This document shows, piece by piece, positions 6,176-26,577 of a stretch of 64,000 bases of DNA. Source of the stretch: Phenylobacterium sp. (GTDB taxonomy: Bacteria; Pseudomonadota; Alphaproteobacteria; Caulobacterales; Caulobacteraceae); the NCBI RefSeq assembly GCF_030697925.1, contig NZ_JAUYOJ010000064.1, positions 1 to 64,000 of the forward strand. The letters run 5' to 3'. A program made the position numbers and the translations under genes. The notes under the pieces were generated by a model. The model saw only the letters and a list, made by a program, of their open reading frames with translations, was not told the origin of the DNA and did no database searches. Each line of letters begins with the position of its first letter. The first letter of the stretch is position 1.

Positions 6176-6332
6176 CCGGCTCCGAGCCGTTTTCTGGGCT
6201 TCGACCGAGTACGACACACTTCGATTAGCTTATAGATTTCATAAACTTACCTACGCCCGAGTTCGCTGGGGTGGGTTGCCGTTTCCCACCGCGGAGTTGC
6301 AGTGTGGTTGCAGTAGCAGCCGTCCGCGCCCC

Positions 6333-7694
6333 ATGCCCAAACTCACGAAAACTATCGTCGAGGCCCTGGAACCCTCCGTCAACCCATCGGGGACGGTGCA
6401 CTGGGACACCCAGCTCGCCGGCTTCGGTGTCCGGGTCTTCCCGTCCGGCGCCAGGAAGTTCGTGTTGAAGTACCGCACCCGCGGCGGTCGCCAGCGCTGG
6501 CTCACCCTGGGCGCCTTCGGGCCCCTGACCGTCGAGCGCGCCCGCGAAATCGCGCGGCTGGAATCCGCGGCCGTGATCGAAGGCGCCGACCCGGTCGCGG
6601 TCCGGCAAGAGGCGCGCGACGCCGTTACGATCAGCGAGCTGTGCGACCTCTATATGGACGCCGCCGAGAAGGGGTTGATCGTCGGACGCGGCGGCAAGTG
6701 CAAGCGCCCGTCGACAGTTGCGACCGACAAGAGCCGTATCAGCGCGCAGATCAAGCCGCTGATCGGGGCCATCAAGGCTGCCGAGCTCACGCGGGCCGAT
6801 GTTGAGAAGCTCAAGGTCAACATCGCTGAGGGCAAGGCGGCGCGGGACGTCAAGACCAAGCGCCGCGGCCGCTCGATCGTGCGCGGCGGCCGTGGCGCCT
6901 CGACCCGAGTGCTCGGCCTACTGGGCTCGATCTGCAACTGGGGCGTCGAGAACGGCTACCTCGCCGAGAACCCGGTGAAGCGTGTCCGGCGATTTGCCAG
7001 CGACCAGCGCAAGGCCCTGCTCACCGCGTATCAGTACCGCTTCCTCGGCGCGGCGCTGGACGCGCTCGCCGAACGCCGGGATCGTCACAACGAACCGCGT
7101 CACAATGCCGTCGGTCTGAAGCTGCTGCGCTTCATCGCGCTCTCGGGCGTTCGGCGCGGCGAGGGCGAGGGGCTGCGCTGGCGCGAGGTGGACAAGACCG
7201 GCACCTGCCTGGCGCTGACCATGACCAAGACCGGCCCGTCACTACGGCCGATCGGGAGCGCCGCTACCCGGCTCCTCGACATGCTCGAAGCGGAGTCTGA
7301 GTTCGTGTTCCCGAACGCCACCCAGGAGGCGGGCTACACGGGCCTGCCGCAGCTCTGGAGTACGGTGAAGGCTGAGGCCGCTCGCCTGGCCGGATGCGCC
7401 AAGGGCGAGGGGCCGCTCGAGGGCCTCACCATGCACCAGCTCCGGCACAGCTTCGCCGGCATTGCCGAGGATTGCGGCGCCTCGATCCCAACGATCGCCG
7501 CCTTGCTCGGCCATCGCCTGGGCGGGGTGACGGGCGGTTACATTCTCAAGCGGCCGGACCGCTACCTGCTGGACGCCGCCGACAAGGCGTCAGAACTGAT
7601 CGATCGCGCCCTGCGCGGCGGCGACTTCGGCGCCGAGATCCTGCGGTTCGAGCCCCGGTCCTCCAGATCCGATATCAGAGCGAAAGCCTCGTGA
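6333..7694 (+). CDS. int: Tyrosine-type site-specific integrase
   Basis: A 453-residue integrase. The N-terminal DUF4102-like arm-binding domain contains WDTQLAGFGVRVFPSG and WLTLGAFGPLTVERAR. The C-terminal catalytic domain shows the first Arg in LSGVRRGEGEGL, HQLRHSFAG (His-x-x-Arg), LLGHRLGG, and the nucleophile Tyr in GGYILKRPDRY. It catalyses recombination between the element and the tRNA-Arg gene whose fragment lies just upstream. The ATG at 6333 is chosen because MPKLTKTIVEAL matches the usual family N-terminus; the frame upstream is open but unconserved. No excisionase sits beside it; an AlpA-like gene lies at 28035. Confidence 0.95.
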   Translation: MPKLTKTIVEALEPSVNPSGTVHWDTQLAGFGVRVFPSGARKFVLKYRTRGGRQRWLTLGAFGPLTVERAREIARLESAAVIEGADPVAVRQEARDAVTISELCDLYMDAAEKGLIVGRGGKCKRPSTVATDKSRISAQIKPLIGAIKAAELTRADVEKLKVNIAEGKAARDVKTKRRGRSIVRGGRGASTRVLGLLGSICNWGVENGYLAENPVKRVRRFASDQRKALLTAYQYRFLGAALDALAERRDRHNEPRHNAVGLKLLRFIALSGVRRGEGEGLRWREVDKTGTCLALTMTKTGPSLRPIGSAATRLLDMLEAESEFVFPNATQEAGYTGLPQLWSTVKAEAARLAGCAKGEGPLEGLTMHQLRHSFAGIAEDCGASIPTIAALLGHRLGGVTGGYILKRPDRYLLDAADKASELIDRALRGGDFGAEILRFEPRSSRSDIRAKAS

Positions 7695-7790: not shown

Positions 7791-7812
7791 AACACAACGA
7801 TATTGTTGTGTT
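7791..7812. promoter_or_regulatory. Palindromic operator before the MNT/HTH cassette
   Basis: A 22-base palindrome with arms AACACAAC and GTTGTGTT around a GATATT centre has a single mismatched pair. It ends one base before the ATG at 7814, so a bound protein would block transcription start or ribosome entry. The HTH protein at 8278 is the natural candidate for autoregulation. Confidence 0.65.
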
Positions 7813-7813
7813 C

Positions 7814-8281
7814 ATGATCCCGCCACTCATCGATGTCGGTTCGTCTGCGCCATGGTCCGTGCTCCCGCCCGGAATCCATGATGCGACGCTCGACGAGGTC
7901 GCTGCACACTTCGCAACCACTCCCCACCGCCAATGGCTCTTTGGCGGCTTCCTGAGGGTTGTGGACGCGCTGGTGTTGGCGAACTGCGCCTCCGTCTACC
8001 TCGACGGCAGCTTCACCACCGCCAAGCCGCATCCAGGTGATTTTGACGGTTGCTGGGATCACACGAATATGGATCTCACCCAGCTCGACCCCGTGCTGAA
8101 GACCTTCGCGAACAAGCGTGAGGCGCAGAAGAAAAAGTACCTGGGCGAGATGTTTCCGGCCTTTGGGGAGGGCGCGCCGGGGCTGACGTTTCTAGAGTTC
8201 TTCCAGGTCGAGAAATTCTCAGGTGAGCCGAAGGGCATCCTGCGGATTTCGCTCGCATCCTCGAAAGGGGCGACGCCATGA
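7814..8281 (+). CDS. DUF6932-like protein with minimal nucleotidyltransferase motif
   Basis: A 155-residue protein. The central stretch VYLDGSFTTAKPHPGDFDGCWD contains GS followed nine residues later by DxD, the catalytic signature of MNT/pol-beta nucleotidyltransferases. The N-terminus LPPGIHDATLDEVAAHF is typical of DUF6932 proteins as I recall them. MNT proteins often act as antitoxin or toxin partners that nucleotidylate another protein. It overlaps the HTH-peptidase gene by four bases (ATGA), so the two are translated together. The ATG at 7814 sits against a palindromic operator; a GTG at 7808 would lie inside it. Confidence 0.65.
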   Translation: MIPPLIDVGSSAPWSVLPPGIHDATLDEVAAHFATTPHRQWLFGGFLRVVDALVLANCASVYLDGSFTTAKPHPGDFDGCWDHTNMDLTQLDPVLKTFANKREAQKKKYLGEMFPAFGEGAPGLTFLEFFQVEKFSGEPKGILRISLASSKGATP

Positions 8282-9546
8282 TCACTAACGAAAAGCAGCA
8301 CCGCTCCACGCGCCTGCTCATCGACAAGCTGAAGGCCGGGCGCGCTGGCCTCGGCGCCGGCGGTAGCCCTGCCACCGACCCCCTGTTGCTCGAAATTCAG
8401 CGCGACGCGCTGACCAGCCAGATCGAGGAACTGGAAGATGACGTCGCGCTCTATGACGCCCTGCGATCGGGACAGGTCACCGCCTTTGTCGCGGAAGGCC
8501 TGAGCGAGCTCCCCGATATTCTCATCCGGGCGCGGATCGCCCGCGGCATGAGCCAGAAGGATCTCGCCGCCTTCCTTGGTCTCAAGGAGCAGCAGGTCCA
8601 GCGCTATGAGGCCGAACGCTATCGTTCTGCGAGCCTCGATCGGCTTGTCGAGGTGTCCGACGCGCTGGGCGTCCAGATCCATAAGCGCGCCGAACTGGTC
8701 GGCGACAGTCGGATGGAGAGTTATGATCCGGCAGCCTGGCAGGCCTTCCCGATCGCCGAGATGTTCAAGCGCGGTTGGTTCGAGGACTTCTCTGGCTCAA
8801 TGGCGGAGGCTCGCAAGGCCGCGCCGGAACTGGTGCCGGCTTTTCTGCGCGGCGCGCAGTCCCGGTTCGCGCCGGCCGCCCTCCACCGCAAATCCGTGCG
8901 CGCCAGCGGTCAGGTGCATGAAGCGGCCATCGCTGCGTGGGAAGCGCGCGTTCGGCAGCTGGCCGAGCGCGATCCGCCGCCAACGACGTTCGAGCGCGAA
9001 GGCATCAATGACCAGTGGATCGCAGCCCTCGTCGCCCTGACGCTAGATCCTGAGGGACCCGCCAAGGCAGCGGCGCAACTTCGCCAGATCGGTGTGACGC
9101 TCGTCGTCGAACGGCATCTGCCGGGCACCTTGCTGGATGGCGCGGCGCTATGCTCGCTCGACCGTCACGGCATCATTGCGCTGACGCTGCGCCATGATCG
9201 GCTGGACAATTTCTGGTTCACGCTCTTCCACGAGATCGGCCACCTGAAGCTACACATCGGAGAGGGCGAATACGCCGCGATCTTCGACGACACGGAGAGC
9301 CCTGCTTCTAGCGCGCTGGAAGAGGAGGCCGATCTGTTTGCGCAGGAGGCGTTGCTCCCGGCCGCCAAGTGGAATGTCGGCGTGGCCCGTTTCACGCGAA
9401 CGGAGAAGGCCGTGCTGACCGACGCGAAGCGCTTCGGTGTCGGCCCGTCCGTCATCGCCGGGCGCGTCCGGCGCGAGGCCCATGACTACACCTTGCTTCG
9501 CGGACTTGTTGGCGCTGGCGAAGTTCGTCGGCAGTTCGGGGTTTGA
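8278..9546 (+). CDS. XRE-type HTH and ImmA/IrrE metallopeptidase fusion protein
   Basis: A 422-residue protein. Residues about 80-135 form an XRE helix-turn-helix (ARGMSQKDLAAFLGLKEQQVQRYE). The C-terminal half holds the zinc peptidase motif HEIGH at 318-322, with the downstream acidic site EEEADLFAQEALLP. Such fusions act as repressor-plus-protease switches in phage, ICE and toxin-antitoxin operons. The first 60 residues are a helical region also found in HigA-like antitoxins. It sits between the MNT-like gene and the beta protein, with four-base overlaps on both sides, so all three form one operon. The palindrome at 7791 is its likely binding site. Confidence 0.82.
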   Translation: MITNEKQHRSTRLLIDKLKAGRAGLGAGGSPATDPLLLEIQRDALTSQIEELEDDVALYDALRSGQVTAFVAEGLSELPDILIRARIARGMSQKDLAAFLGLKEQQVQRYEAERYRSASLDRLVEVSDALGVQIHKRAELVGDSRMESYDPAAWQAFPIAEMFKRGWFEDFSGSMAEARKAAPELVPAFLRGAQSRFAPAALHRKSVRASGQVHEAAIAAWEARVRQLAERDPPPTTFEREGINDQWIAALVALTLDPEGPAKAAAQLRQIGVTLVVERHLPGTLLDGAALCSLDRHGIIALTLRHDRLDNFWFTLFHEIGHLKLHIGEGEYAAIFDDTESPASSALEEEADLFAQEALLPAAKWNVGVARFTRTEKAVLTDAKRFGVGPSVIAGRVRREAHDYTLLRGLVGAGEVRRQFGV

Positions 9547-10640
9547 GCACCGCGATGACCATCACGCCTCAGCACTACGTGCCCCTGCTCCGCTGGCGAA
9601 TGGGCGAGTATCAGGCCCTCGAGAAGCTTGGCGACGCGCAAAAGGATCGGATCGTTCCGCTACTGGAGGTCCTCCCGCCGGACTACGACTTCGAGCAGCG
9701 CCGGCCCAAGAAGGACATCGACGAACAGCTAAAAACCTTCGGCGACAAGCTCAAGAAGAAGTGGGACGCGCGCCCCGCCCTGCTCGATGGGGCTCAGCTT
9801 CCGGCCGCCACACGGATGGCGGATGGCCGCCATCCGATGACCTATCTATTCGACGAGGCGCGCCAGACCGGCACCTCACTAACGCCGGTGCTGACGCTCG
9901 AAAGCGATGCGGCCTACCGCGACGCGGTGCGGTTGATCGATGGGAACGACCTTCGAGGCGCGGCCCTGCGCTGCACGCTCGAAGAGGCGCTCGACCCCGA
10001 CTTCGACGATTCGGTCGAGACCCTGCTTGAGGCACTGGAGATCAACGCGGACTCGCTCGACATCGTCCTCGATCTGAAAACGCCTGCGTTCGATCCGCAG
10101 GCGAGCCTAGTCGCCGTCCTCACCGCCGCGCTGACCAGCTCTACCGCCTTCGGCCAGGCCCGCAGCATCACCATCATGGCGACGTCGTTTCCGGACTCGA
10201 TGACGACGCTAAAGCTGCCCATCCAGTTCGTCCCTCGCCGGGAGTGGGTTCTCTACAAGGCGCTTGTGGCTTCGCTCGCCCCGGAGGTCCGGCGGCCGAC
10301 CTTCGGCGACTACGGCGTCGCCGCGATCACCTTCGCCCAGGGCGACATGCGCTTCATGCGCGGCTCACCCAATGTCCGCTACGCCGTCGACGATGGGTGG
10401 CTTGTGGCCAAGGCCAAGCGTGAGAAGGGCGGGAGCAACGCACCCTATCCTGGCCTCTGCGCCTCGATCACCGGGTCCGGCCAGTTCAAGGGCTCAGCTT
10501 TTTCGGCCGGCGGCGCCTACATCGAAGGTTGCAGCATAGGCGCTCAGAAGCGCGGCAACCCGACCGTTTGGAAATGGGTCGCCACGAACCATCACATCAC
10601 GAAGGTCGTGGACGATCTCGCCACGCTTCCCGGTGCTTGA
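9543..10640 (+). CDS. Beta family protein
   Basis: A 365-residue protein of the beta family, known from phage T4 and from bacterial mobile islands. Landmarks are YVPLLRWRMGEYQALEKL at the N-terminus, VPLLEVLPPDYDFE, and a C-terminal YPGLCASITGSGQFKGSAF with YIEGCSIGAQKRGNPTVWK. The function is unsettled. The gene is repeatedly found beside sce7726-type nuclease-like proteins, as it is here. The start may be TTG at 9543 overlapping the previous TGA, or ATG at 9555. Its 3' end overlaps the convergent sce7726 gene by 44 bases. Confidence 0.75.
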   Translation: MSTAMTITPQHYVPLLRWRMGEYQALEKLGDAQKDRIVPLLEVLPPDYDFEQRRPKKDIDEQLKTFGDKLKKKWDARPALLDGAQLPAATRMADGRHPMTYLFDEARQTGTSLTPVLTLESDAAYRDAVRLIDGNDLRGAALRCTLEEALDPDFDDSVETLLEALEINADSLDIVLDLKTPAFDPQASLVAVLTAALTSSTAFGQARSITIMATSFPDSMTTLKLPIQFVPRREWVLYKALVASLAPEVRRPTFGDYGVAAITFAQGDMRFMRGSPNVRYAVDDGWLVAKAKREKGGSNAPYPGLCASITGSGQFKGSAFSAGGAYIEGCSIGAQKRGNPTVWKWVATNHHITKVVDDLATLPGA

Positions 10641-12575: not shown

Positions 12576-13598
12576 CTAGGTGTCGAGCATGTCCCATTCG
12601 TCTCCAAGCACCCAGCGCAGGGCGCTCAGCTTGCCGTTGACCATCCCCCACTCGAAGTCTGACCAGGGCCCGAGGTCATCGGTGCGACGTGCCTCGACGC
12701 GGGCGGCGGCGGCCAGCGCGGCGGCCCAGGTGCTTTGCGACATCAATTCCCGCGGATATCGATCTCTCGGATAGTCGGCGTCTGGCACGACGGTGATTGC
12801 GCCGCTTTCGACCTCGTTCCGCAGGCCCCAGTGCCGGTTGTACCAAACCTGATCGAACAGGCGGTCGATGGCCTCGAGAATCTCCGGCAGGCGCCGGGAT
12901 TCCATCGACCACTCGGCCTCGAACCGCACCTCGTCCATGACCTCGGGCGCAAACTCCGCAAGGATCTCGGCAAGGCTGGTCGCATAGACCGAGTCCTGGT
13001 CGAACAGGCCGGCAAGGTCCGGGTGGGGTCGGCGGATGTCCCCCGTCGGGTCACTGAAGTCACGGGTGTTATGGGTGATGAAGGCGGTCCGCTCGGGACT
13101 GATCAGCTCGTCACAGGCGTCGACGTATTGCTCGATCAGGATGGCGTCGTTGATCGCATTCTTCTGCCGATGAAACGGGGCCTTGCCGAGGATCGCCCGC
13201 TCGCTGGCGCGGACCTTGACGGCGTCCGAGGCGGGCACGATCTCGGCGGCCGCGAACAACGCCTCGATCCGCTCCACGGTTTCGCGGGCGGCGTCAGCCA
13301 GGATGGCGACGCGGTGATCGACCTCATCCAGTCCCCGAACGATCGCGGATTTCGTCTCGACCGGCCCAAACCGCTCCACCGTGTCCTTCACCCGGCGGAA
13401 CAGGCCTGAGAGGCTCTGAGCGCCCTCGCGGACAATGCGGTCCTTGTTGCGGCCGAACTCGTCGACGACGGTCTGCGGCACGATAAGGGCGACGTCCCCT
13501 TGCTCGACGAGAGTTTCGAGGCACGACAGGATCGGCAGCTGCCGATGGTCCTTGGCGAGCTCGAGCCAGACACACGTGTCGATCAGCATGTGCAGCAT
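12576..13598 (-). CDS. PIN-domain protein (DUF4935-like)
   Basis: About 340 residues. The N-terminal PIN domain has the acidic site spread across LIDTCVWLEL, VPQTVVDEFGRNKDR, KNAINDAILIE and ITHNTRDFS, which supply the usual Asp/Glu residues for metal-dependent RNA cleavage. A C-terminal helical region of about 150 residues follows, with no clear match. Large PIN proteins of this type are found in defence islands and are presumed RNases. No small antitoxin gene precedes it. Starts at 13598 and 13589 are both possible, with no clear ribosome site. Confidence 0.75.
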   Translation of the reverse strand: MLHMLIDTCVWLELAKDHRQLPILSCLETLVEQGDVALIVPQTVVDEFGRNKDRIVREGAQSLSGLFRRVKDTVERFGPVETKSAIVRGLDEVDHRVAILADAARETVERIEALFAAAEIVPASDAVKVRASERAILGKAPFHRQKNAINDAILIEQYVDACDELISPERTAFITHNTRDFSDPTGDIRRPHPDLAGLFDQDSVYATSLAEILAEFAPEVMDEVRFEAEWSMESRRLPEILEAIDRLFDQVWYNRHWGLRNEVESGAITVVPDADYPRDRYPRELMSQSTWAAALAAAARVEARRTDDLGPWSDFEWGMVNGKLSALRWVLGDEWDMLDT

Positions 13599-13687
13599 GA
13601 CAGTCGGGACCGATTTTCCGTTTGCAGCCCCGATCATAGCAGCCAAGTTTGTGGCCGAGGACCGATGGTCGGTGGGTGAACAGGGCT

Positions 13688-14069
13688 ATGGCGACGACTG
13701 TCAGCGAGGTGGTGGCCGCCTTTCAGCACCTGTACGAAAGCATCCACGACCGGGACTGCTGCAAGACCCTTCCCTTGCGCACCTACAACGAGCGCACCCT
13801 GGCGCCACTGGTCCGCACCTTCCTGCTCGGTTGGTTCGGGCACGTCTCGCCGGAGAAGCGCGCGGCGCTTCACCGAGCTGACACTTGGCGCACCCCTCGC
13901 CCCTGGCGACGCCGATGGCGTCCACGGTTGGCGACTGGAGCGGTTCGTGGCCGACGAGCTGTTGCGATGTCGGCAGGGCTGGCTCTTTGACAACACCATG
14001 GACCCCAACCTCGACGAACTTCTCTATCACCGCGGCGATCTTCATCGCCGTGGACTTCGGGGCGGATGA
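13688..14069 (+). pseudogene. Hypothetical gene split by a frameshift near 13862
   Basis: The frame from ATG 13688 encodes a protein with LYESIHDRDCCKTLPLRTYN and VRTFLLGWFGHVSPEKRA. From about 13862 sensible coding continues only in the next frame, through FTELTLGAPL, WRLERFVADELLRCRQGW, LFDNTMDPNLDELLYHRG, to a TGA at 14069. A one-base indel therefore splits the gene, or the assembly has an error. No family is recognised. It lies between the PIN gene and the Ubl operon. A third frame also reads to 14079 but is less convincing. Confidence 0.5.
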
Positions 14070-14110
14070 TTGGGACTAGATCGGAACAGCTCGGTGCCAC
14101 CCGCTAGCGA

Positions 14111-14470
14111 TCAGCACCAGTTGATCCGCCCCCTGGTGAGATAGAAGTGGCTTTCGCATCCCGTCTTCCGCCAGATCGACGGCGTCACCGACGGGTGACC
14201 GGTCGCGTCGGTCACGACCGACCAACGGGGTGAGCGCGCGCCGAAGAACCGCAGATGTAGAGTTGCGCGACAGCCACAGGGACAGACCATAAAGCCGAAC
14301 GTCGGCTGACCCTGTTGGGAGGTCACGTAGAGCCGGTGCGGTCGCAAGTGGGCGGGCCGTTCCGTTGAAGGGACAACCGCGATCGGTGGCCGCCAGCGGT
14401 CGCGCATTCCGCGCCGCCAGCGCTTCCATCCTGACCCGATCGCCTCGATGTGTTTTTGAACCCACCTCAT
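14111..14470 (-). CDS. DUF6527 family protein, fourth gene of the ubiquitin-like operon
   Basis: A 119-residue cysteine-rich protein. The core FMVCPCGCRATLHLRFFG is followed by HPSVTPSIWR, GCESHFYLTRGRINWC, giving CPCGC, GC.SHF and a final WC. These residues look like a zinc site. As I recall, DUF6527 proteins are encoded next to multi-ubiquitin-type Ubl, E2-like and E1/JAB proteins. Its role is unknown; it might be a ligase, a substrate adaptor or a target. The ATG at 14470 overlaps the TGA of the JAB-E1 gene as ATGA, so it is translationally coupled as the last gene of the operon. Confidence 0.78.
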   Translation of the reverse strand: MRWVQKHIEAIGSGWKRWRRGMRDRWRPPIAVVPSTERPAHLRPHRLYVTSQQGQPTFGFMVCPCGCRATLHLRFFGARSPRWSVVTDATGHPSVTPSIWRKTGCESHFYLTRGRINWC

Positions 14471-15843
14471 GCGGCGTCCTCGAGGCGGCTGGACATCAAC
14501 AACGGTGCGCAATCGCCGCGGCCGACATATCGCGCCAGTTCGAGGTCAGGCTCTCCGTCCGGTCTCGTCGCAATACGGCCATGGGTCAGCAGTAGCTTTT
14601 GCACCGCGAATTTGGCGTTGGGCTCCGTCCGATACGGATGGAGCCTCGCCAGGAACTCATTCACCGCAGTGGCCGCGGTCAGCGTGTTGACGCTGATCAC
14701 CGCGGGACTATCAACCCGTACGCCGCGGATGTAGCCTCGGCGAACCTGGTCTTCATAGAAGTTCGGATCGGTACGCTTGAGGTATTCGGCGTGAAGCACG
14801 GCGTCGCTGTAGACGCCGCGGCTCTTCAGGCTCGATCCCCCAGGTTGCAGGTAGTGGACACCAGCCGAGACGCTCTCCACGCCGCCGGTCCCGTCGGCGT
14901 CCAGCCGGACGCCCAGGTCGAAATAGGGGAGACTATAGAACGCGGCGATCCGGTTGAGGATATCGCGCCCTTCGACCGAATCGACGCAGCCGAACACGAT
15001 GTCGCAGGTGCTGAGCAAGGCGACGGCCTCGGGGGTGTCGACGCGGGCCTGACAGACCACCAGTTCCGTCCCCAGGCCAACGGCGTCCAGATGGGTTTTC
15101 ATCATCTGCGCCTTGTTGGTCCCCGCTTCGGCGTCGGCACGTTTCGAACCCCAGATACGGTTCAGGTTCTTTCCCTCGACAATGTCAGGCTCGATCTCGA
15201 CGATGCGACCGACGCCCAGGCGCGCCAGCATTTCGACAGTCGGACTGCCCGTGCCGGAGACCCCCACCACACCCACGCTGAGAGTCGACAGCAAGTTGGT
15301 GGTCCGGTCGCCGAACATCTGACGGTGACGCTGGTCGAAATCCTGCGGCGCGCAACCGCGCGGCTCCGGCCAGTACGAGAGGTTGTCGCCCACCACGGCC
15401 ACGCGCTCGACGGCCGCAAAGCCGCCGTCGGCGTCTACTTCGCGGGCGAACATCTCGCCGTCCGGCAGCATCACGGCGCTGAGGTGGGGGCCTGCGACCT
15501 TTAGGGCGACCGAGCGGAAGATCTCGACGTCCGACGCGTCGTCGCGCGCCGAGAATTCTCGGAAACCTTCAGGGTGAGAGTGCACCTTCATCACCGACAG
15601 ACCGAGCCGCGCCGCCTCGGTTAGGGCGTCGCGCAGACGCCGCGTCGGCCAGGTTACGAAGTCGCGCCCGCGCTGGCACTCGCTGTGCGGAATCTCGATC
15701 ACCTTGTGGACCAGATGGACTCGGCGGCCCTCGCTCTCGGCCCGGCCGCAGAGGGCGATGGCGACCCCCTCGAAGCCGCTGCCATCGAACAGATGCAACT
15801 GAAGCTGGCCGTGCTGGGTCGCCGTCATGCGTAGTTTGCTCAT
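14467..15843 (-). CDS. JAB deubiquitinase-like domain fused to ThiF/E1 adenylating enzyme
   Basis: A 458-residue fusion. The N-terminal JAB/MPN domain has Glu25 (FEGVAIALCG) and a full JAMM motif HSHPEGFREFSARD with His88, His90, Ser98 and Asp101, so zinc protease activity is expected. The C-terminal ThiF/E1 domain has the loop GVSGTGS (194-200), EPDIVEGKNLNR with Asp220 and Arg229, and FGCVDSVEGRD around Cys286. It should adenylate the C-terminus of the Ubl and may form a thioester. The start at 15843 is favoured because GGAG lies six bases upstream; ATG 15855 is alternative. It lies between the E2 and DUF6527 genes. Confidence 0.88.
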   Translation of the reverse strand: MSKLRMTATQHGQLQLHLFDGSGFEGVAIALCGRAESEGRRVHLVHKVIEIPHSECQRGRDFVTWPTRRLRDALTEAARLGLSVMKVHSHPEGFREFSARDDASDVEIFRSVALKVAGPHLSAVMLPDGEMFAREVDADGGFAAVERVAVVGDNLSYWPEPRGCAPQDFDQRHRQMFGDRTTNLLSTLSVGVVGVSGTGSPTVEMLARLGVGRIVEIEPDIVEGKNLNRIWGSKRADAEAGTNKAQMMKTHLDAVGLGTELVVCQARVDTPEAVALLSTCDIVFGCVDSVEGRDILNRIAAFYSLPYFDLGVRLDADGTGGVESVSAGVHYLQPGGSSLKSRGVYSDAVLHAEYLKRTDPNFYEDQVRRGYIRGVRVDSPAVISVNTLTAATAVNEFLARLHPYRTEPNAKFAVQKLLLTHGRIATRPDGEPDLELARYVGRGDCAPLLMSSRLEDAA

Positions 15844-15859
15844 CGCGATCTCCATGGGG

Positions 15860-16243
15860 TTAGCGCTTGCGAAGTTCGTGCTTCAGCCAGGCCCGGACCC
15901 GGCGGAGGTGACTGCACAAGGTGTCGATCCCCGAGCGCCATCCGTAGTGGCGAGACCACTGCTGGAAGGCCTTCCCGTCGATCTGCAAGACGCTGAGGTT
16001 GTTGATGGCCTTGCCGTCGCTGCGCGCCAGCGGCGGATAGAAGTAGACCATGTCGATGATGCCAGGCGGATAGGTGTCGATGCGGATCGCCGCGCACGCC
16101 GTCAGGTGACTGAAGCCCGCAGGGATCGGATGGTCGTGGATCAAGATCCACCGAACGCCTCCGTCGCGGACGGTCTCCCAAGTCAGTCCGAGCGCATCAA
16201 GCGCCCGGACATCCTCAGGGCCGAGTTCGAACTCCCGGCGCAT
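15860..16243 (-). CDS. E2/UBC-like protein (prokaryotic E2 family E type)
   Basis: A 127-residue protein with a UBC-fold pattern: WILIHDHPIPAGF, IRIDTYPPGIIDMVYFYPP with the YP and PP turn typical of E2s, then AFQQWSRHYGWRSGIDTLC and a C-terminal helix. It matches the E2-like proteins found with multi-ubiquitin domain proteins. The classical His-x-Asn before an E2 cysteine is absent. Only Cys50 and Cys110 are present, and neither can be assigned as catalytic from sequence alone. It lies four bases downstream of the Ubl gene and 16 bases before the JAB-E1 gene. It presumably receives Ubl from the E1. Confidence 0.8.
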   Translation of the reverse strand: MRREFELGPEDVRALDALGLTWETVRDGGVRWILIHDHPIPAGFSHLTACAAIRIDTYPPGIIDMVYFYPPLARSDGKAINNLSVLQIDGKAFQQWSRHYGWRSGIDTLCSHLRRVRAWLKHELRKR

Positions 16244-16247
16244 CGCG

Positions 16248-16664
16248 TCAGCCCTCGGTCTCGTCGAGCGGGAAGGTCTCGAAGACCTCGATGCCGCGCT
16301 CGCCGAGATCGACCGATTGGTCGAGCTCGACAGCCACGTAGTGTCCGCCGTGCATCCGCTTCTCGATCTCGTAGTGCTCGGGCGGCGCCTTGCCGGCGAT
16401 CACCAGCAGTTCGCGGCCGGTCACGAAGCGCTTCCGGATGACGTGGTGCTCGTGATCGATCTTCACCCGGTAGCTGTGGGCCAAGGGCGGCAGGCGGTTG
16501 TCCCGGCCGCATTCTTCGATGTCCACGATCTCGATGACGATGCGTTCGTGATCGCCGTGGTGTTCGACGTCGACGGCGATCACCGTGCGGTCGCCGTCGA
16601 TGTGTTCGGCGACCACCACAACGTCGGGGTGGGCGCGATCGGGAGTGTTGGAACGATTGTCCAT
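16248..16664 (-). CDS. Ubiquitin-like modifier with one multi-ubiquitin-type domain
   Basis: A 138-residue protein. Residues 1-60 are acidic and His-rich, with IVIEIVDIEECG. Residues about 65-131 form one beta-grasp domain of the multi-ubiquitin family, with YRVKIDHEHHVI, VTGRELLVIAGKAPPEHYE and the terminal VFETFP. The chain ends in DETEG, so the last residue is Gly and no cleavage would be needed to expose it. It is the first gene of the operon, preceded by GAGG five bases before the ATG. It should be the conjugated modifier of the system. Confidence 0.85.
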   Translation of the reverse strand: MDNRSNTPDRAHPDVVVVAEHIDGDRTVIAVDVEHHGDHERIVIEIVDIEECGRDNRLPPLAHSYRVKIDHEHHVIRKRFVTGRELLVIAGKAPPEHYEIEKRMHGGHYVAVELDQSVDLGERGIEVFETFPLDETEG

Positions 16665-16817
16665 AGTGACCTCGTAGTGTCGGACGAGGCCACCGCGGCC
16701 CGTCTTCGCTAAATGTGCGAAGCGGTGCTAAGTTTGTCAAGCGAACTTAGAGGTGCTTGACGAATTTAGCGGAATGCCTACGTTACGCCACCCCAAAAAT
16801 AGCAGACGGGTGCGCCC
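16665..16817. promoter_or_regulatory. Divergent promoters with nested inverted-repeat operators
   Basis: Between the Ubl operon and the XRE gene lie two nested perfect inverted repeats: outer CGCTAAAT (16707-16714) with ATTTAGCG (16764-16771), and inner CTAAGTT (16728-16734) with AACTTAG (16744-16750). Plus-strand TTGACG at 16757-16762 and TACGTT at 16779-16784 are 16 bases apart. Minus-strand TTGACA (complement of 16735-16740) faces the Ubl gene, with a weak -10 near 16712-16717. All four half-sites share CTAARTT, so one repressor, probably the XRE protein, could control both directions. Confidence 0.75.
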
Positions 16818-17186
16818 ATGAGCCCAGCAAGGAAGAAGGATGATACGACGCCAGAACTCGGCAAGTTCCTGAAAGACATCAGAGTTTCCCGAGGGTTTTC
16901 GCTGCGCGAGGTAGAGCGAATCACCGAGGGAAAGATTTCCAACGGCTACCTGAGCCAGCTTGAAAACGGCGAGATCGCCAAGCCGTCGGCGATCATGTTG
17001 CACCGACTGTCCGCCGCCTACGGCGTCGATTATGGCACGCTAATGGAGCGGGCCGGGTTCGTCAGCGAATCGGAAGCGCCGGTCAACCGTGTCGCCACTT
17101 CGATTCTCGGCGAGCTCACTTCGGACGAGGAGGAGCAGTTGCTGAATTATCTCGGCTTCCTGCGTAGTCAGAAGGCGAAGAAATAA
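16818..17186 (+). CDS. XRE family transcriptional regulator
   Basis: A 122-residue protein. Residues about 15-75 form an XRE helix-turn-helix (LRVSRG-type IRVSRGFSLREVERITEGKISNGYLSQLENG). The C-terminal part ends in SILGELTSDEEEQLLNYLGFLRS, a short helical tail common in regulators paired with ImmA peptidases. It overlaps the ImmA gene as TAATG. The divergent operators at 16707-16771 make it the likely repressor of both its own operon and the Ubl operon. Confidence 0.88.
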   Translation: MSPARKKDDTTPELGKFLKDIRVSRGFSLREVERITEGKISNGYLSQLENGEIAKPSAIMLHRLSAAYGVDYGTLMERAGFVSESEAPVNRVATSILGELTSDEEEQLLNYLGFLRSQKAKK

Positions 17187-18103
17187 TGCGGCCGGATGAT
17201 TCGACCGTCTCGCGCGAGCAAAGCATCGAAATCCGCCTCGCAGCCACAAAGATGCTGCAGGACGCCGGCGCCTTGGGGACCTACCCCACGCCGGTCGATG
17301 AGATCATGCGCGCGGCCAAGATCGAAATCGTCCCCATCGCCCTCGACGAGAGTTACCTCGCCAAACTACGGCGCAGGGCCGAGCAGACTGGCAAGGCGCT
17401 GCTTAGCGCGCTGAGCAAACTATGGGGCGTCTTCGATCCGAAGGCCCGCATCGCTTTCATCGATCCGGAGACGCCCAAGGAGAAGGTGCCGTTCCTCAAG
17501 CTTCATGAGGGTGGGCACGCGGTGTTGCCCTGGCAGAGCATCTTTGGCCTGTTCGAAGATTGCCGAAAGACCCTGGACCCCGAGATCAAGGCTCAGTTCG
17601 AGCGTGAGGCCAATGTCTTCGCCTCCGACGTCCTGTTCCAGCTCGACGGCTTCGCTCTCGAAGCGGCCGACCATAAATTCGGCATCACCGTGCCGTTGCG
17701 CTTGGCCAAACGCTACGGGGCGTCGGTGTACGCGACCGTGCGGCGCTACGTGACGAGCAGCGACCGGACCTGCGCGGTAGTGGTCCTTAACCCGCCCGAG
17801 CTCGCTGAAGTCGTCGGCTACTTCTGCACCATTCGGCGCGCCATCACCTCGCCAGCTTTCGACCGGAAGTTTCCGGGTTTGGCCTGGCCGACGACGGTCA
17901 CGCCAGACGACGCGCTGGGCAAGATCATCCCGGTGAACCGAATGACCGGGCCACGTCCGCTACGCATCGTAGACGCCAACGGCGACACCCAGGAGTTCGT
18001 CGCCGAGGCGTTCAAGACACCGCATCAGACGTTCATTCTCATCCACGCCGCCGAGAAAATCCGACGTCGCGTGCTCCTAGCCACCGAGTTCGAAGCCGTC
18101 TGA
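17186..18103 (+). CDS. ImmA/IrrE family zinc metallopeptidase
   Basis: A 305-residue protein. The zinc motif HEGGH is at 107-111 in FLKLHEGGHAVLPW, and the third ligand is likely within QFEREANVFASDVL near 137-150. ImmA/IrrE peptidases cleave a partner XRE repressor after damage or infection and so switch on the repressed genes. The partner is almost certainly the XRE protein encoded immediately upstream. The C-terminal 120 residues, with a PVNRMTGPRPLRIVDANGD stretch, may sense a signal. The 3' end overlaps the convergent membrane-protein gene by 27 bases. Confidence 0.85.
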   Translation: MRPDDSTVSREQSIEIRLAATKMLQDAGALGTYPTPVDEIMRAAKIEIVPIALDESYLAKLRRRAEQTGKALLSALSKLWGVFDPKARIAFIDPETPKEKVPFLKLHEGGHAVLPWQSIFGLFEDCRKTLDPEIKAQFEREANVFASDVLFQLDGFALEAADHKFGITVPLRLAKRYGASVYATVRRYVTSSDRTCAVVVLNPPELAEVVGYFCTIRRAITSPAFDRKFPGLAWPTTVTPDDALGKIIPVNRMTGPRPLRIVDANGDTQEFVAEAFKTPHQTFILIHAAEKIRRRVLLATEFEAV

Positions 18104-26057: not shown

Positions 26058-26372
26058 GTGAAACCGTTCCTCGATCTCGTCGGCCGCTCCGGCGCCTCCT
26101 ATCGGCTGAAGCTGGCCGCGCCCGACCGGTTGCCGACCACTGCCGGCAACTTCGTGTTCCTGCGCGCCTCGGCCAGCGGCGAGCAGGTGGTCTGCTGCGG
26201 CACGGCCAGGAGCTTGACCCGCGCGGCCGGCCTCTGGACCACGGCGGTCGAACAGCACCGGGCGAACCGCATCTATGTCCGGCTCAATGTCTCGCGCGAG
26301 GCGCGCGAACGGGAGCACGAGGATCTCCTCGGCGCCCTGCAACCGGTGATGGTCGCGGCCGAGCTGGACTGA
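26058..26372 (+). CDS. Conserved small ICE protein, function unknown
   Basis: A 104-residue protein starting at GTG 26058, with PFLDLVGRSGASYRLKLA, TTAGNFVFLRASASGEQVVCCGTARSL, and RIYVRLNVSREAREREHEDLL. The frame is open further upstream to 25830, but that part is Arg-rich and looks like non-coding shadow. Related proteins occur beside DUF736 and DUF2958 genes in alphaproteobacterial ICEs, as I recall them. No function is known. Confidence 0.6.
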   Translation: MKPFLDLVGRSGASYRLKLAAPDRLPTTAGNFVFLRASASGEQVVCCGTARSLTRAAGLWTTAVEQHRANRIYVRLNVSREAREREHEDLLGALQPVMVAAELD

Positions 26373-26577
26373 GCGGACAAGCCGCTCGCCTTCTCCCGGC
26401 GCAAAACGGGGCGATATGGGCCTCGGCTAGGTTCGAATCCGGACCTCGCCGGCTCACCTGGTCATGCGGTCCGGACGCCAGGGAACGGCCTCCCGTCGCA
26501 ACCCCACCCAGGCGGACCTCTCCTGGCCTGATCTAGCCGAGGGTTAAGCGGCTGACGCCGCCGATCCTTGGCCGCAA

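What the first reader, a model, noticed from the sequence alone, without database searches (positions are those of the whole stretch)
14111..16664. Complete bacterial ubiquitin-like conjugation operon: Ubl, E2, JAB-E1 fusion, DUF6527
Four minus-strand genes, spaced or overlapping by a few bases, encode a single-domain multi-ubiquitin-type modifier, a UBC-fold E2-like protein, an E1 fused to an intact JAMM protease, and a Cys-rich DUF6527 protein. The E1 and JAB motifs look intact. Related operons were predicted by comparative genomics, and other bacterial Ubl systems (Bil/Bub types) act against phages, but this four-gene form with a fused JAB-E1 and DUF6527 has, to my knowledge, no firm function. 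Its place in an ICE defence island suggests anti-phage or anti-plasmid activity.
Basis: partly seen in the sequence, partly recalled or inferred. Interest (0 to 1): 0.9.

Follow-up and report, generated by a model that had tools for sequence, protein, structure and literature searches.

The report
A mobile bacterial ubiquitin-like (Bub) operon
A bacterial mobile element carries a complete, intact-looking ubiquitin-like protein-tagging operon of the already described Bub type with a DNA-damage-type switch beside it; the type is known, but the job of its fourth protein (DUF6527) is still open.

Summary
In detail: four minus-strand genes at 14111-16664 encode a single beta-grasp Ubl, an E2-family protein, a JAB-E1 fusion and DUF6527, with the checked motifs intact. 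The interpretation needs correcting. This is a standard Bub operon: the fusion matches solved Citrobacter BubCD (E 1.5e-73), the E2 matches BubB (2.8e-27), the layout was described in 2006 (type 6e), and DUF6527 follows BubCD in 80 of 80 related loci examined. The E2 family has no conserved cysteine and the E1 loop carries Ser/Thr, which fits a non-thioester route. The operon is cargo of a conjugative element beside PD-Lambda-2 homologues. Anti-phage activity is plausible but not shown; a 2026 paper says Bub has not been demonstrated to protect. Open is DUF6527: invariant C-x3-C...C-x2-H, a confident all-beta model without a clear match among solved structures, a near-invariant extra cysteine, and rare stand-alone phage homologues.

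The parts
16248..16664 (-). BubA-type ubiquitin-like modifier, 138 aa; single beta-grasp (62-132) after a low-confidence N-terminus; ends ...FPLDETEG with an exposed C-terminal Gly
   Evidence: PF14452 E 2.1e-12; C-terminal EG in all 65 rows of A3 (window plus 64 of 67 hits); AF2 block means of pLDDT 94-98 over residues 61-130; Foldseek best 8u38 E 7.2e-5, Citrobacter BubA 9ea8_B E 1.3e-3, TMt 0.80
15860..16243 (-). BubB-type E2/UBC-family protein without conserved Cys, 127 aa; W96-S97-R98-H99 and H112 invariant in the set examined
   Evidence: PF14462 E 9.2e-27; Citrobacter BubB E 2.8e-27; conservation over 81 sequences
14467..15855 (-). BubCD: N-terminal JAMM domain fused to a ThiF/E1-type adenylating domain, 462 aa (ATG 15855) or 458 aa (ATG 15843)
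   Evidence: ThiF E 8.4e-25; Citrobacter BubCD E 1.5e-73; JAMM and E1 residues identical in 120 of 120 and in 81-82 of 82
14111..14470 (-). DUF6527 protein, 119 aa; C63-P-C65-G-C67 ... C105-x2-H108; overlaps the BubCD stop by ATGA
   Evidence: PF20137 E 1.3e-19; four ligand-type residues in 103 of 103; AF2 pLDDT 93.1
16665..16817 (-). Divergent intergenic promoter/operator region: GCTAAATTCGTCAAGC-N12-GCTTGACAAACTTAGC, with a TTGACA box inside the second arm
   Evidence: 14 of 16 paired; best of 60 dinucleotide shuffles 12; second half-site identical in L029 and L019, not in 7 other loci tested
16818..17186 (+). HTH repressor, CapH-like, 122 aa
   Evidence: HTH_19 E 3.4e-10; PADLOC HTH_VI E 4.6e-8, capH E 1.9e-5
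17186..18103 (+). ImmA/IrrE (M78) metallopeptidase, CapP-like, 305 aa, HExxH intact (HEGGH from residue 107)
   Evidence: PF06114 E 2.3e-5; PADLOC capP E 1.8e-16; HEGGH

Best explanation
This is a Bub (bacterial ubiquitination-like) operon carried as cargo of a conjugative integrative element and controlled by an adjacent CapH/CapP-type pair. Proposed working: DNA damage (for example by an incoming phage or element) activates the CapP-like protease, which cleaves the CapH-like repressor sitting on the inverted repeat over the -35 box. The four genes are then made. The E1 half of BubCD adenylates the ready-made C-terminal glycine of BubA and passes it to a Ser/Thr (S342) in its catalytic loop rather than to a cysteine; the cysteine-less BubB positions or completes transfer to target proteins. 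The JAMM half removes the modifier again and keeps the system quiet. DUF6527, a small zinc-type protein, serves as an adaptor for targets or for the transfer complex. Shown here: gene content, intact motifs, family membership, regulator pair, a half-site shared by three loci, constant linkage of DUF6527 in the loci examined. From a paper: ssDNA-activated CapP cleaving CapH. Inferred: conjugation chemistry in this protein set, targets, zinc binding and role of DUF6527, damage induction at this locus, defence function.
For: BubCD E 1.5e-73 and BubB E 2.8e-27 to Citrobacter Bub proteins. Best Foldseek matches of BubA are bacterial multi-ubiquitin proteins. JAMM (E29, H92, H94, S102, D105) and adenylation residues (D224, N230, R233, K248) 120 of 120; S342 is Ser or Thr in 117 of 120 and 78 of 82; the window has no Cys between 318 and 362. 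BubA ends in EG in 65 of 65 aligned. BubA and BubB upstream in 79 of 80 loci (the 80th, L081, is cut by its contig) and DUF6527 downstream in 80 of 80 (the best 80 of 299 relatives). CapH/CapP-like pair in the same divergent place in L019, and an ImmA/IrrE plus HTH pair in that place on Synechocystis plasmid pSYSX. Operator. 219 of 544 Bub operons have CapW or CapH+CapP, and CapP activated by ssDNA cleaves CapH (PMC13373217, passages and section 7 read). Operon type 6e of Iyer et al. 2006 (PMC1779556, passages read).
Against: No experiment on this operon. Prok-JAB scores just under its Pfam cut-off. The oxyester idea rests on conservation plus my memory of Ye et al. 2026, whose text is not held; S342 is Asp in 3 and Gly in 1 of 82. 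Position 330, near the loop, is Cys in 42 of 82, though the window has Ser there. H112 of BubB is Gln in Citrobacter BubB. PADLOC at E up to 1 matched nothing for BubA, BubB or DUF6527, and for the HTH protein ranks HTH_VI (4.6e-8) above capH (1.9e-5). At E 1e-30 only 2 of 35 congeners have a homologue, both distant, so there is no close genomic comparison. Of 9 other loci tested for the inverted repeat, only L019 and L029 share the half-site, and L019's repeat does not exceed its shuffles (6 of 60 reach it). No sigma-70 promoter was found by the consensus scan.
Confidence: 0.82

Rival explanations
1. A Bub operon whose main job is a stress response or element maintenance (for example timing or stabilising transfer of the mobile element after DNA damage), not defence against phages.
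For: The authors of PMC13373217 themselves leave open that Bub operons mediate global stress responses (passage). The operon sits between the integrase (6276-7694) and ParB-like, RepA, ParA and T4SS genes; 99 of 72,556 plasmid records carry a relative of BubCD at E 1e-20, 54 of them predicted conjugative.
Against: It lies beside PD-Lambda-2 B/C homologues, and its regulator type recurs at CBASS and other defence operons (PMC13373217); anti-phage systems are common cargo, so location on an element favours neither reading.
Confidence: 0.3
2. A Bil-type system (canonical Cys-E1, Cys-E2, separate JAB; features recalled), that is, the anti-phage ISG15-like system.
For: Same set of activities (Ubl, E1, E2 family, JAMM). 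BubA's best sequence hit among solved structures is labelled BilA by its depositors (8u38, E 1.9e-5), though the record title calls it a multi-ubiquitin domain protein.
Against: JAB is fused to E1; no Cys column in the E2 family; E1 loop Ser/Thr; the closest solved relatives of BubCD and BubB are named Bub.
Confidence: 0.03
3. A degenerate operon that only looks complete (pseudo-operon in transit on the element).
For: Patchy distribution: at E 1e-30 only 2 of 35 congeners have a homologue, both distant.
Against: All four frames open, starts and overlaps tidy, JAMM and E1 residues that are identical in 120 aligned sequences are present, HExxH of the protease intact and operator present.
Confidence: 0.03

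Closest known systems
Bub (bacterial ubiquitination-like) operons; Citrobacter BubA/BubB/BubCD (PDB 9ea4, 9ea5, 9ea8, 9eae, 9eav)
   Same: Same protein families and JAB-E1 fusion; on Citrobacter freundii plasmid pNY2385-HI2 a DUF6527 gene follows the ThiF gene
   Different: On that plasmid a 363-codon multiubiquitin gene precedes the ThiF gene, no separate E2 gene is annotated, and a winged-helix regulator lies upstream; here BubA is a separate single-domain Ubl and the switch is CapH/CapP-like. Whether this plasmid is the source of the solved proteins was not checked
Operon type 6e of Iyer, Burroughs and Aravind 2006 (PMC1779556)
   Same: polyUbl, inactive E2/RWD-like protein, JAB-E1 fusion, protein with C-x3-C-x(35-38)-H-x2-C signature (passages)
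   Different: Here the last pair is C-x2-H; the model shows no helix in the cysteine-bearing part, where the 2006 paper suggested perhaps a treble clef. That DUF6527 is the 2006 paper's protein Y is my inference
Synechocystis sp. PCC 6803 plasmid pSYSX operon
   Same: Same six-gene layout: ImmA/IrrE and HTH divergent from multiubiquitin, E2/UBC, ThiF, DUF6527
   Different: ThiF protein only 30.2% identical
CapH/CapP regulator pair of CBASS and other immune operons
   Same: HTH plus M78 peptidase with HExxH, beside the operon promoter
   Different: Weak CapH score (1.9e-5, behind HTH_VI); cleavage and ssDNA response not tested
Bil (BilABCD) anti-phage system
   Same: Ubl, E1, E2, JAMM logic
   Different: Fused JAB-E1, no conserved E2 Cys, DUF6527 present; Bil details recalled, not tested by a call
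DUF6791-ThiF / Multi_ubiq / DUF6527 operons (DUF6791-ThiF by Pfam in L017, L022, L023)
   Same: DUF6527 next to an E1; Multi_ubiq Ubl found by Pfam in L017, L018, L020, L024
   Different: E1 fused to DUF6791 instead of JAB; no Prok-E2_E match in these genomes

Membership tests
Bub operon | Multi_ubiq-type Ubl with C-terminal Gly | tested here: met
Bub operon | Prok-E2_E protein without catalytic Cys (BubB) | tested here: met
Bub operon | JAMM domain fused N-terminally to E1 (BubCD) | tested here: met
   Prok-JAB Pfam score slightly under cut-off
Bub operon | Protein Y / DUF6527 next to the E1 | tested here: met
   (80 of 80 loci)
Bub operon | Damage-responsive regulator (CapW, CapH+CapP or CapKS) adjacent (frequent, not defining) | tested here: met
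   by sequence only; frequency from PMC13373217
Bub operon | Covalent Ubl conjugation by E1/E2 without Cys thioesters (recalled) | not testable with these tools
   needs biochemistry; Ser/Thr at the E1 loop is only consistent with it
CapH/CapP pair | HTH repressor plus M78 protease with HExxH next to the operon promoter | tested here: met
   PADLOC capH 1.9e-5 (HTH_VI 4.6e-8 ranks higher), capP 1.8e-16; HEGGH
CapH/CapP pair | ssDNA-activated cleavage of the repressor | not testable with these tools
   stated for other CapH+CapP in PMC13373217
Bil system | E2 with catalytic Cys (recalled) | tested here: not met
   no column with more than 10 Cys in 81 sequences
Bil system | JAMM enzyme as a separate protein (recalled) | tested here: not met
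   fused
Treble-clef / RING E3 (for DUF6527) | Treble-clef or RING zinc fold | tested here: inconclusive
Conjugative integrative element (carrier) | Integrase, T4SS ATPase, coupling protein and mating-pair genes | tested here: met
   integrase, VirD4/TraG, TrbE-like, TrbL, RepA, ParA; element ends and relaxase not determined

The most novel reading that the evidence does not exclude
DUF6527 is the missing catalytic or targeting piece of a ubiquitin-like cascade whose E1 and E2 have no catalytic cysteine: a new, non-RING zinc fold that supplies a reactive cysteine (C65 of the 119-aa protein, the middle Cys of C-P-C-G-C, not needed as a ligand in the two relatives that lack it) as an E3-like transfer factor shared by two E1 types. 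The stand-alone DUF6527 genes in phages would then be decoys or hijackers of this tagging.
Probability: 0.08. Interest if true: 0.85.

Novelty: new member of a known kind. Interest (0 to 1): 0.4.

Why it matters
As a find it adds one intact-looking, mobile Bub operon with a complete CapH/CapP-type switch and a compact single-domain BubA. The useful result is around DUF6527: it is a constant fourth component in the loci examined (80 of 80, the best 80 of 299 relatives) and also sits beside a second E1 type (Pfam-checked in three loci); its confident model has no clear match among solved structures, and it has rare stand-alone phage relatives. The same six-gene layout exists on a plasmid of the laboratory strain Synechocystis PCC 6803, so its role could be tested by gene removal.

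Tried and rejected
Rejected: Bil membership (Cys-less E2, fused JAB). Rejected: a two-domain BubA; residues 1-24 are under pLDDT 50, and 30-54 form a hairpin and helix of moderate confidence, not a second beta-grasp. Rejected: a conserved C-terminal Cys in DUF6527 (last residue Cys in only 24 of 97). Rejected as evidence: the JAB-E1-DUF6527 'fusion' P0068, known from one 2.8-kb contig (two member sequences) with both parts truncated. Foldseek and VIA-align found no clear solved relative of the DUF6527 model; this does not prove a new fold. The first genome-contig scan, with DUF6527 alone, found nothing. The promoter scan found no sigma-70 site in 13900-17300, although TTGACA is present. In the regulator tally, L104 was misfiled: its M78 gene lies downstream of the operon, so 26, not 27, loci of 79 have a divergent M78 gene under 480 aa. 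My BubA model found one beta-grasp in 78 of 79 loci, but a model trained on single domains may miss diverged repeats. The no-match for Multi_ubiq in four phage records had no ringing control and proves little. Dropped before counts: 3 of 120 BubCD homologues for length, 3 of 67 BubA hits (P0136, P0174, P0201). Ubl-E1 and Ubl-E2 complex predictions were not run (single-chain tool, both jobs used).
Full report
What is there. Four minus-strand genes fill 14111-16664 with gaps of 4 bases or a 4-base overlap. The order is Ubl (138 aa), E2-family protein (127 aa), JAB-E1 (462 or 458 aa), DUF6527 (119 aa from ATG 14470). The JAB part is marginal in Pfam (23.6 bits, cut-off 25) but secure through the match to Citrobacter BubCD (residues 7-417, E 1.5e-73).

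What it belongs to. By sequence the closest solved relatives are named BubCD and BubB. BubA's best sequence hits are the Methylobacterium multi-ubiquitin protein, labelled BilA in 8u38 (E 1.9e-5); Citrobacter BubA is found by fold (9ea8_B, E 1.3e-3, TMt 0.80). The operon architecture was described in 2006 as type 6e: polyUbl, inactive E2/RWD-like protein, JAB-E1 fusion and a cysteine/histidine protein (PMC1779556, passages read). A 2026 paper by the group that named Bub counts 544 Bub operons, 219 of them with CapW or CapH+CapP (PMC13373217, passages and section 7 read). Gong et al. 2025 and Ye et al. 2026 were seen only as references because their text is not held. My memory is that Ye et al. 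describe an oxyester intermediate; no call confirms it, and a search for papers holding oxyester, Bub, bacterial and Ubl found none. A review (PMC12687455, passages read) says such systems appear to act mainly in phage defence; PMC13373217 says that Bub has not been demonstrated to protect.

Catalytic anatomy. In 120 aligned sequences (window, L019, L021, and 117 of the 120 listed homologues, kept by length) the JAMM residues E29, H92, H94, S102, D105 and the E1 residues D224, N230, R233, K248 are identical in all. In the loop where a cysteine would be expected the window has P338-G-G-S-S342; position 342 is Ser or Thr in 117 of 120 and 78 of 82 in a second, overlapping set, and Citrobacter has Thr there. 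That this is the catalytic loop is inferred from the family's layout. Position 330 is Cys in 42 of 82 but Ser here. Across 81 BubB sequences no column has more than 10 Cys; W96-S97-R98-H99 and H112 are invariant in these 81, though Citrobacter BubB has Gln at the position of H112. BubA ends in Glu-Gly in all 65 aligned rows (window plus 64 of 67 hits; P0136, P0174 and P0201 were left out), so no tail has to be removed before activation; the JAMM domain most likely removes conjugates.

Control. Divergent to the operon lie an HTH protein and an M78 peptidase with HEGGH. PADLOC scores the peptidase best as capP (1.8e-16); for the HTH protein it ranks HTH_VI (4.6e-8) first and capH (1.9e-5) second. 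The 153-base gap holds GCTAAATTCGTCAAGC-N12-GCTTGACAAACTTAGC, 14 of 16 paired, against at most 12 in 60 shuffles. Brevundimonas abyssalis (L029) has both half-sites unchanged; L019, whose BubCD is only 33% identical, keeps GCTTGACAAACTTAGC unchanged, although its pairing does not beat its own shuffles (6 of 60 reach it). The other 7 loci tested do not share the half-site. L019 also keeps the divergent HTH-M78 pair, and Synechocystis pSYSX has an ImmA/IrrE and HTH pair there. Among the 80 loci, within about 4.5 kb of BubA, 26 have a divergent M78 gene under 480 aa, 4 a codirectional one, 11 an M78 domain in a protein over 1000 aa (one, L045, checked: a UvrD helicase), 5 have BubA within 1.5 kb of a contig end, 33 had none found (32 plus L104) and one (L081) has no BubA (corrected for L104).

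Phage relatives. With an L020 DUF6527, tblastn found three phage genes among 50,697 records (Erwinia phage pEa_SNUABM_29 3e-15, Burkholderia phage FLC9 1e-9, Dulem virus 40 1e-8). An L019 query added a weak one, Thiobacimonas phage vB_ThpS-P1 (E 0.01; profile support). The window's own DUF6527 found none at E 1. The four records have no ThiF match (control rang). In IMG/VR 8 loci were found: 7 without a detected E1 or Ubl in the flanks held (up to 6 kb), 1 with a DUF6791-E1 operon. BubCD itself occurred in 0 phage records at E 1e-5 and in 1 IMG/VR contig with a full operon. Of 7 phage or viral loci whose neighbour was checked, the Erwinia phage has a head-and-packaging virion protein before DUF6527 and L120 a weak major-head-protein match; the others gave no such match. 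In the Thiobacimonas phage the gene lies between terminase subunits. What these phage genes do is unknown.

Setting. The window is contig 160 of a 4.8-Mb draft genome. Integrase (6276-7694), a ParB-like gene (below Pfam cut-offs), RepA, ParA, VirD4/TraG, TrbE-like and TrbL genes mark a conjugative element, and PD-Lambda-2 B and C homologues lie at 8278-10640. BubCD relatives at E 1e-30 occur in 2 of 35 congeners, at 40% and 34% identity, and at E 1e-20 in 99 of 72,556 plasmid records. This fits horizontal spread.

Verdict. Observation confirmed; kind known; the four-gene form is the rule in the loci examined, not an exception. A defence role is my favoured guess but unproven. Open and testable: the function of DUF6527 and the chemistry of a cascade without conserved catalytic cysteines.

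Noticed in passing
window 7808-10640 (+): Homologues of PD-Lambda-2 B (E 2.6e-80) and C (E 2.1e-42) directly after a DUF6932 gene: a second likely defence system in the same cargo region.
   Followed up: partly
window 12576-13646 (-): PIN_12-domain protein (E 1.4e-20) on the same strand, 464 bases downstream of DUF6527; probably not part of the Bub operon.
   Followed up: no
L110:2896-3165, L112:2803-3117, L111:3905-4189, L109:4887-5183; IMG/VR L113, L115-L120: Stand-alone DUF6527 homologues in phages and viral contigs, without a detected E1 or Ubl nearby.
   Followed up: partly
L045:3704-7135 (L046-L049 have an ORF of the same size in the same place): UvrD helicase with an N-terminal M78 peptidase domain and a PD-(D/E)XK nuclease domain directly upstream of Bub (domains checked for L045 only; positions).
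   Followed up: no
L032:3835-7248: AAA ATPase plus subtilase pair directly upstream of the Bub operon; gene pairs of similar size sit upstream in L040, L050 and L090 (only L032 was domain-checked).
   Followed up: no
L098:5458-7185: RtcR-type sigma-54 activator divergent from a Bub operon, another possible switch.
   Followed up: no
window 16479-16529 (BubA residues 46-62): Conserved stretch just before the beta-grasp; E50, G53, R54, P59, P60 invariant in 65 of 65; function unknown.
   Followed up: no
window 26358-26451 (+): ARAGORN tRNA-Glu (ctc), 94 bases, inside the element; not checked further.
   Followed up: no
Caulobacter vibrioides control genome: Rings for DUF6527 over its cut-off but not for Prok-E2_E: another DUF6527 outside a JAB-E1/E2 operon of this type.
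   Followed up: no
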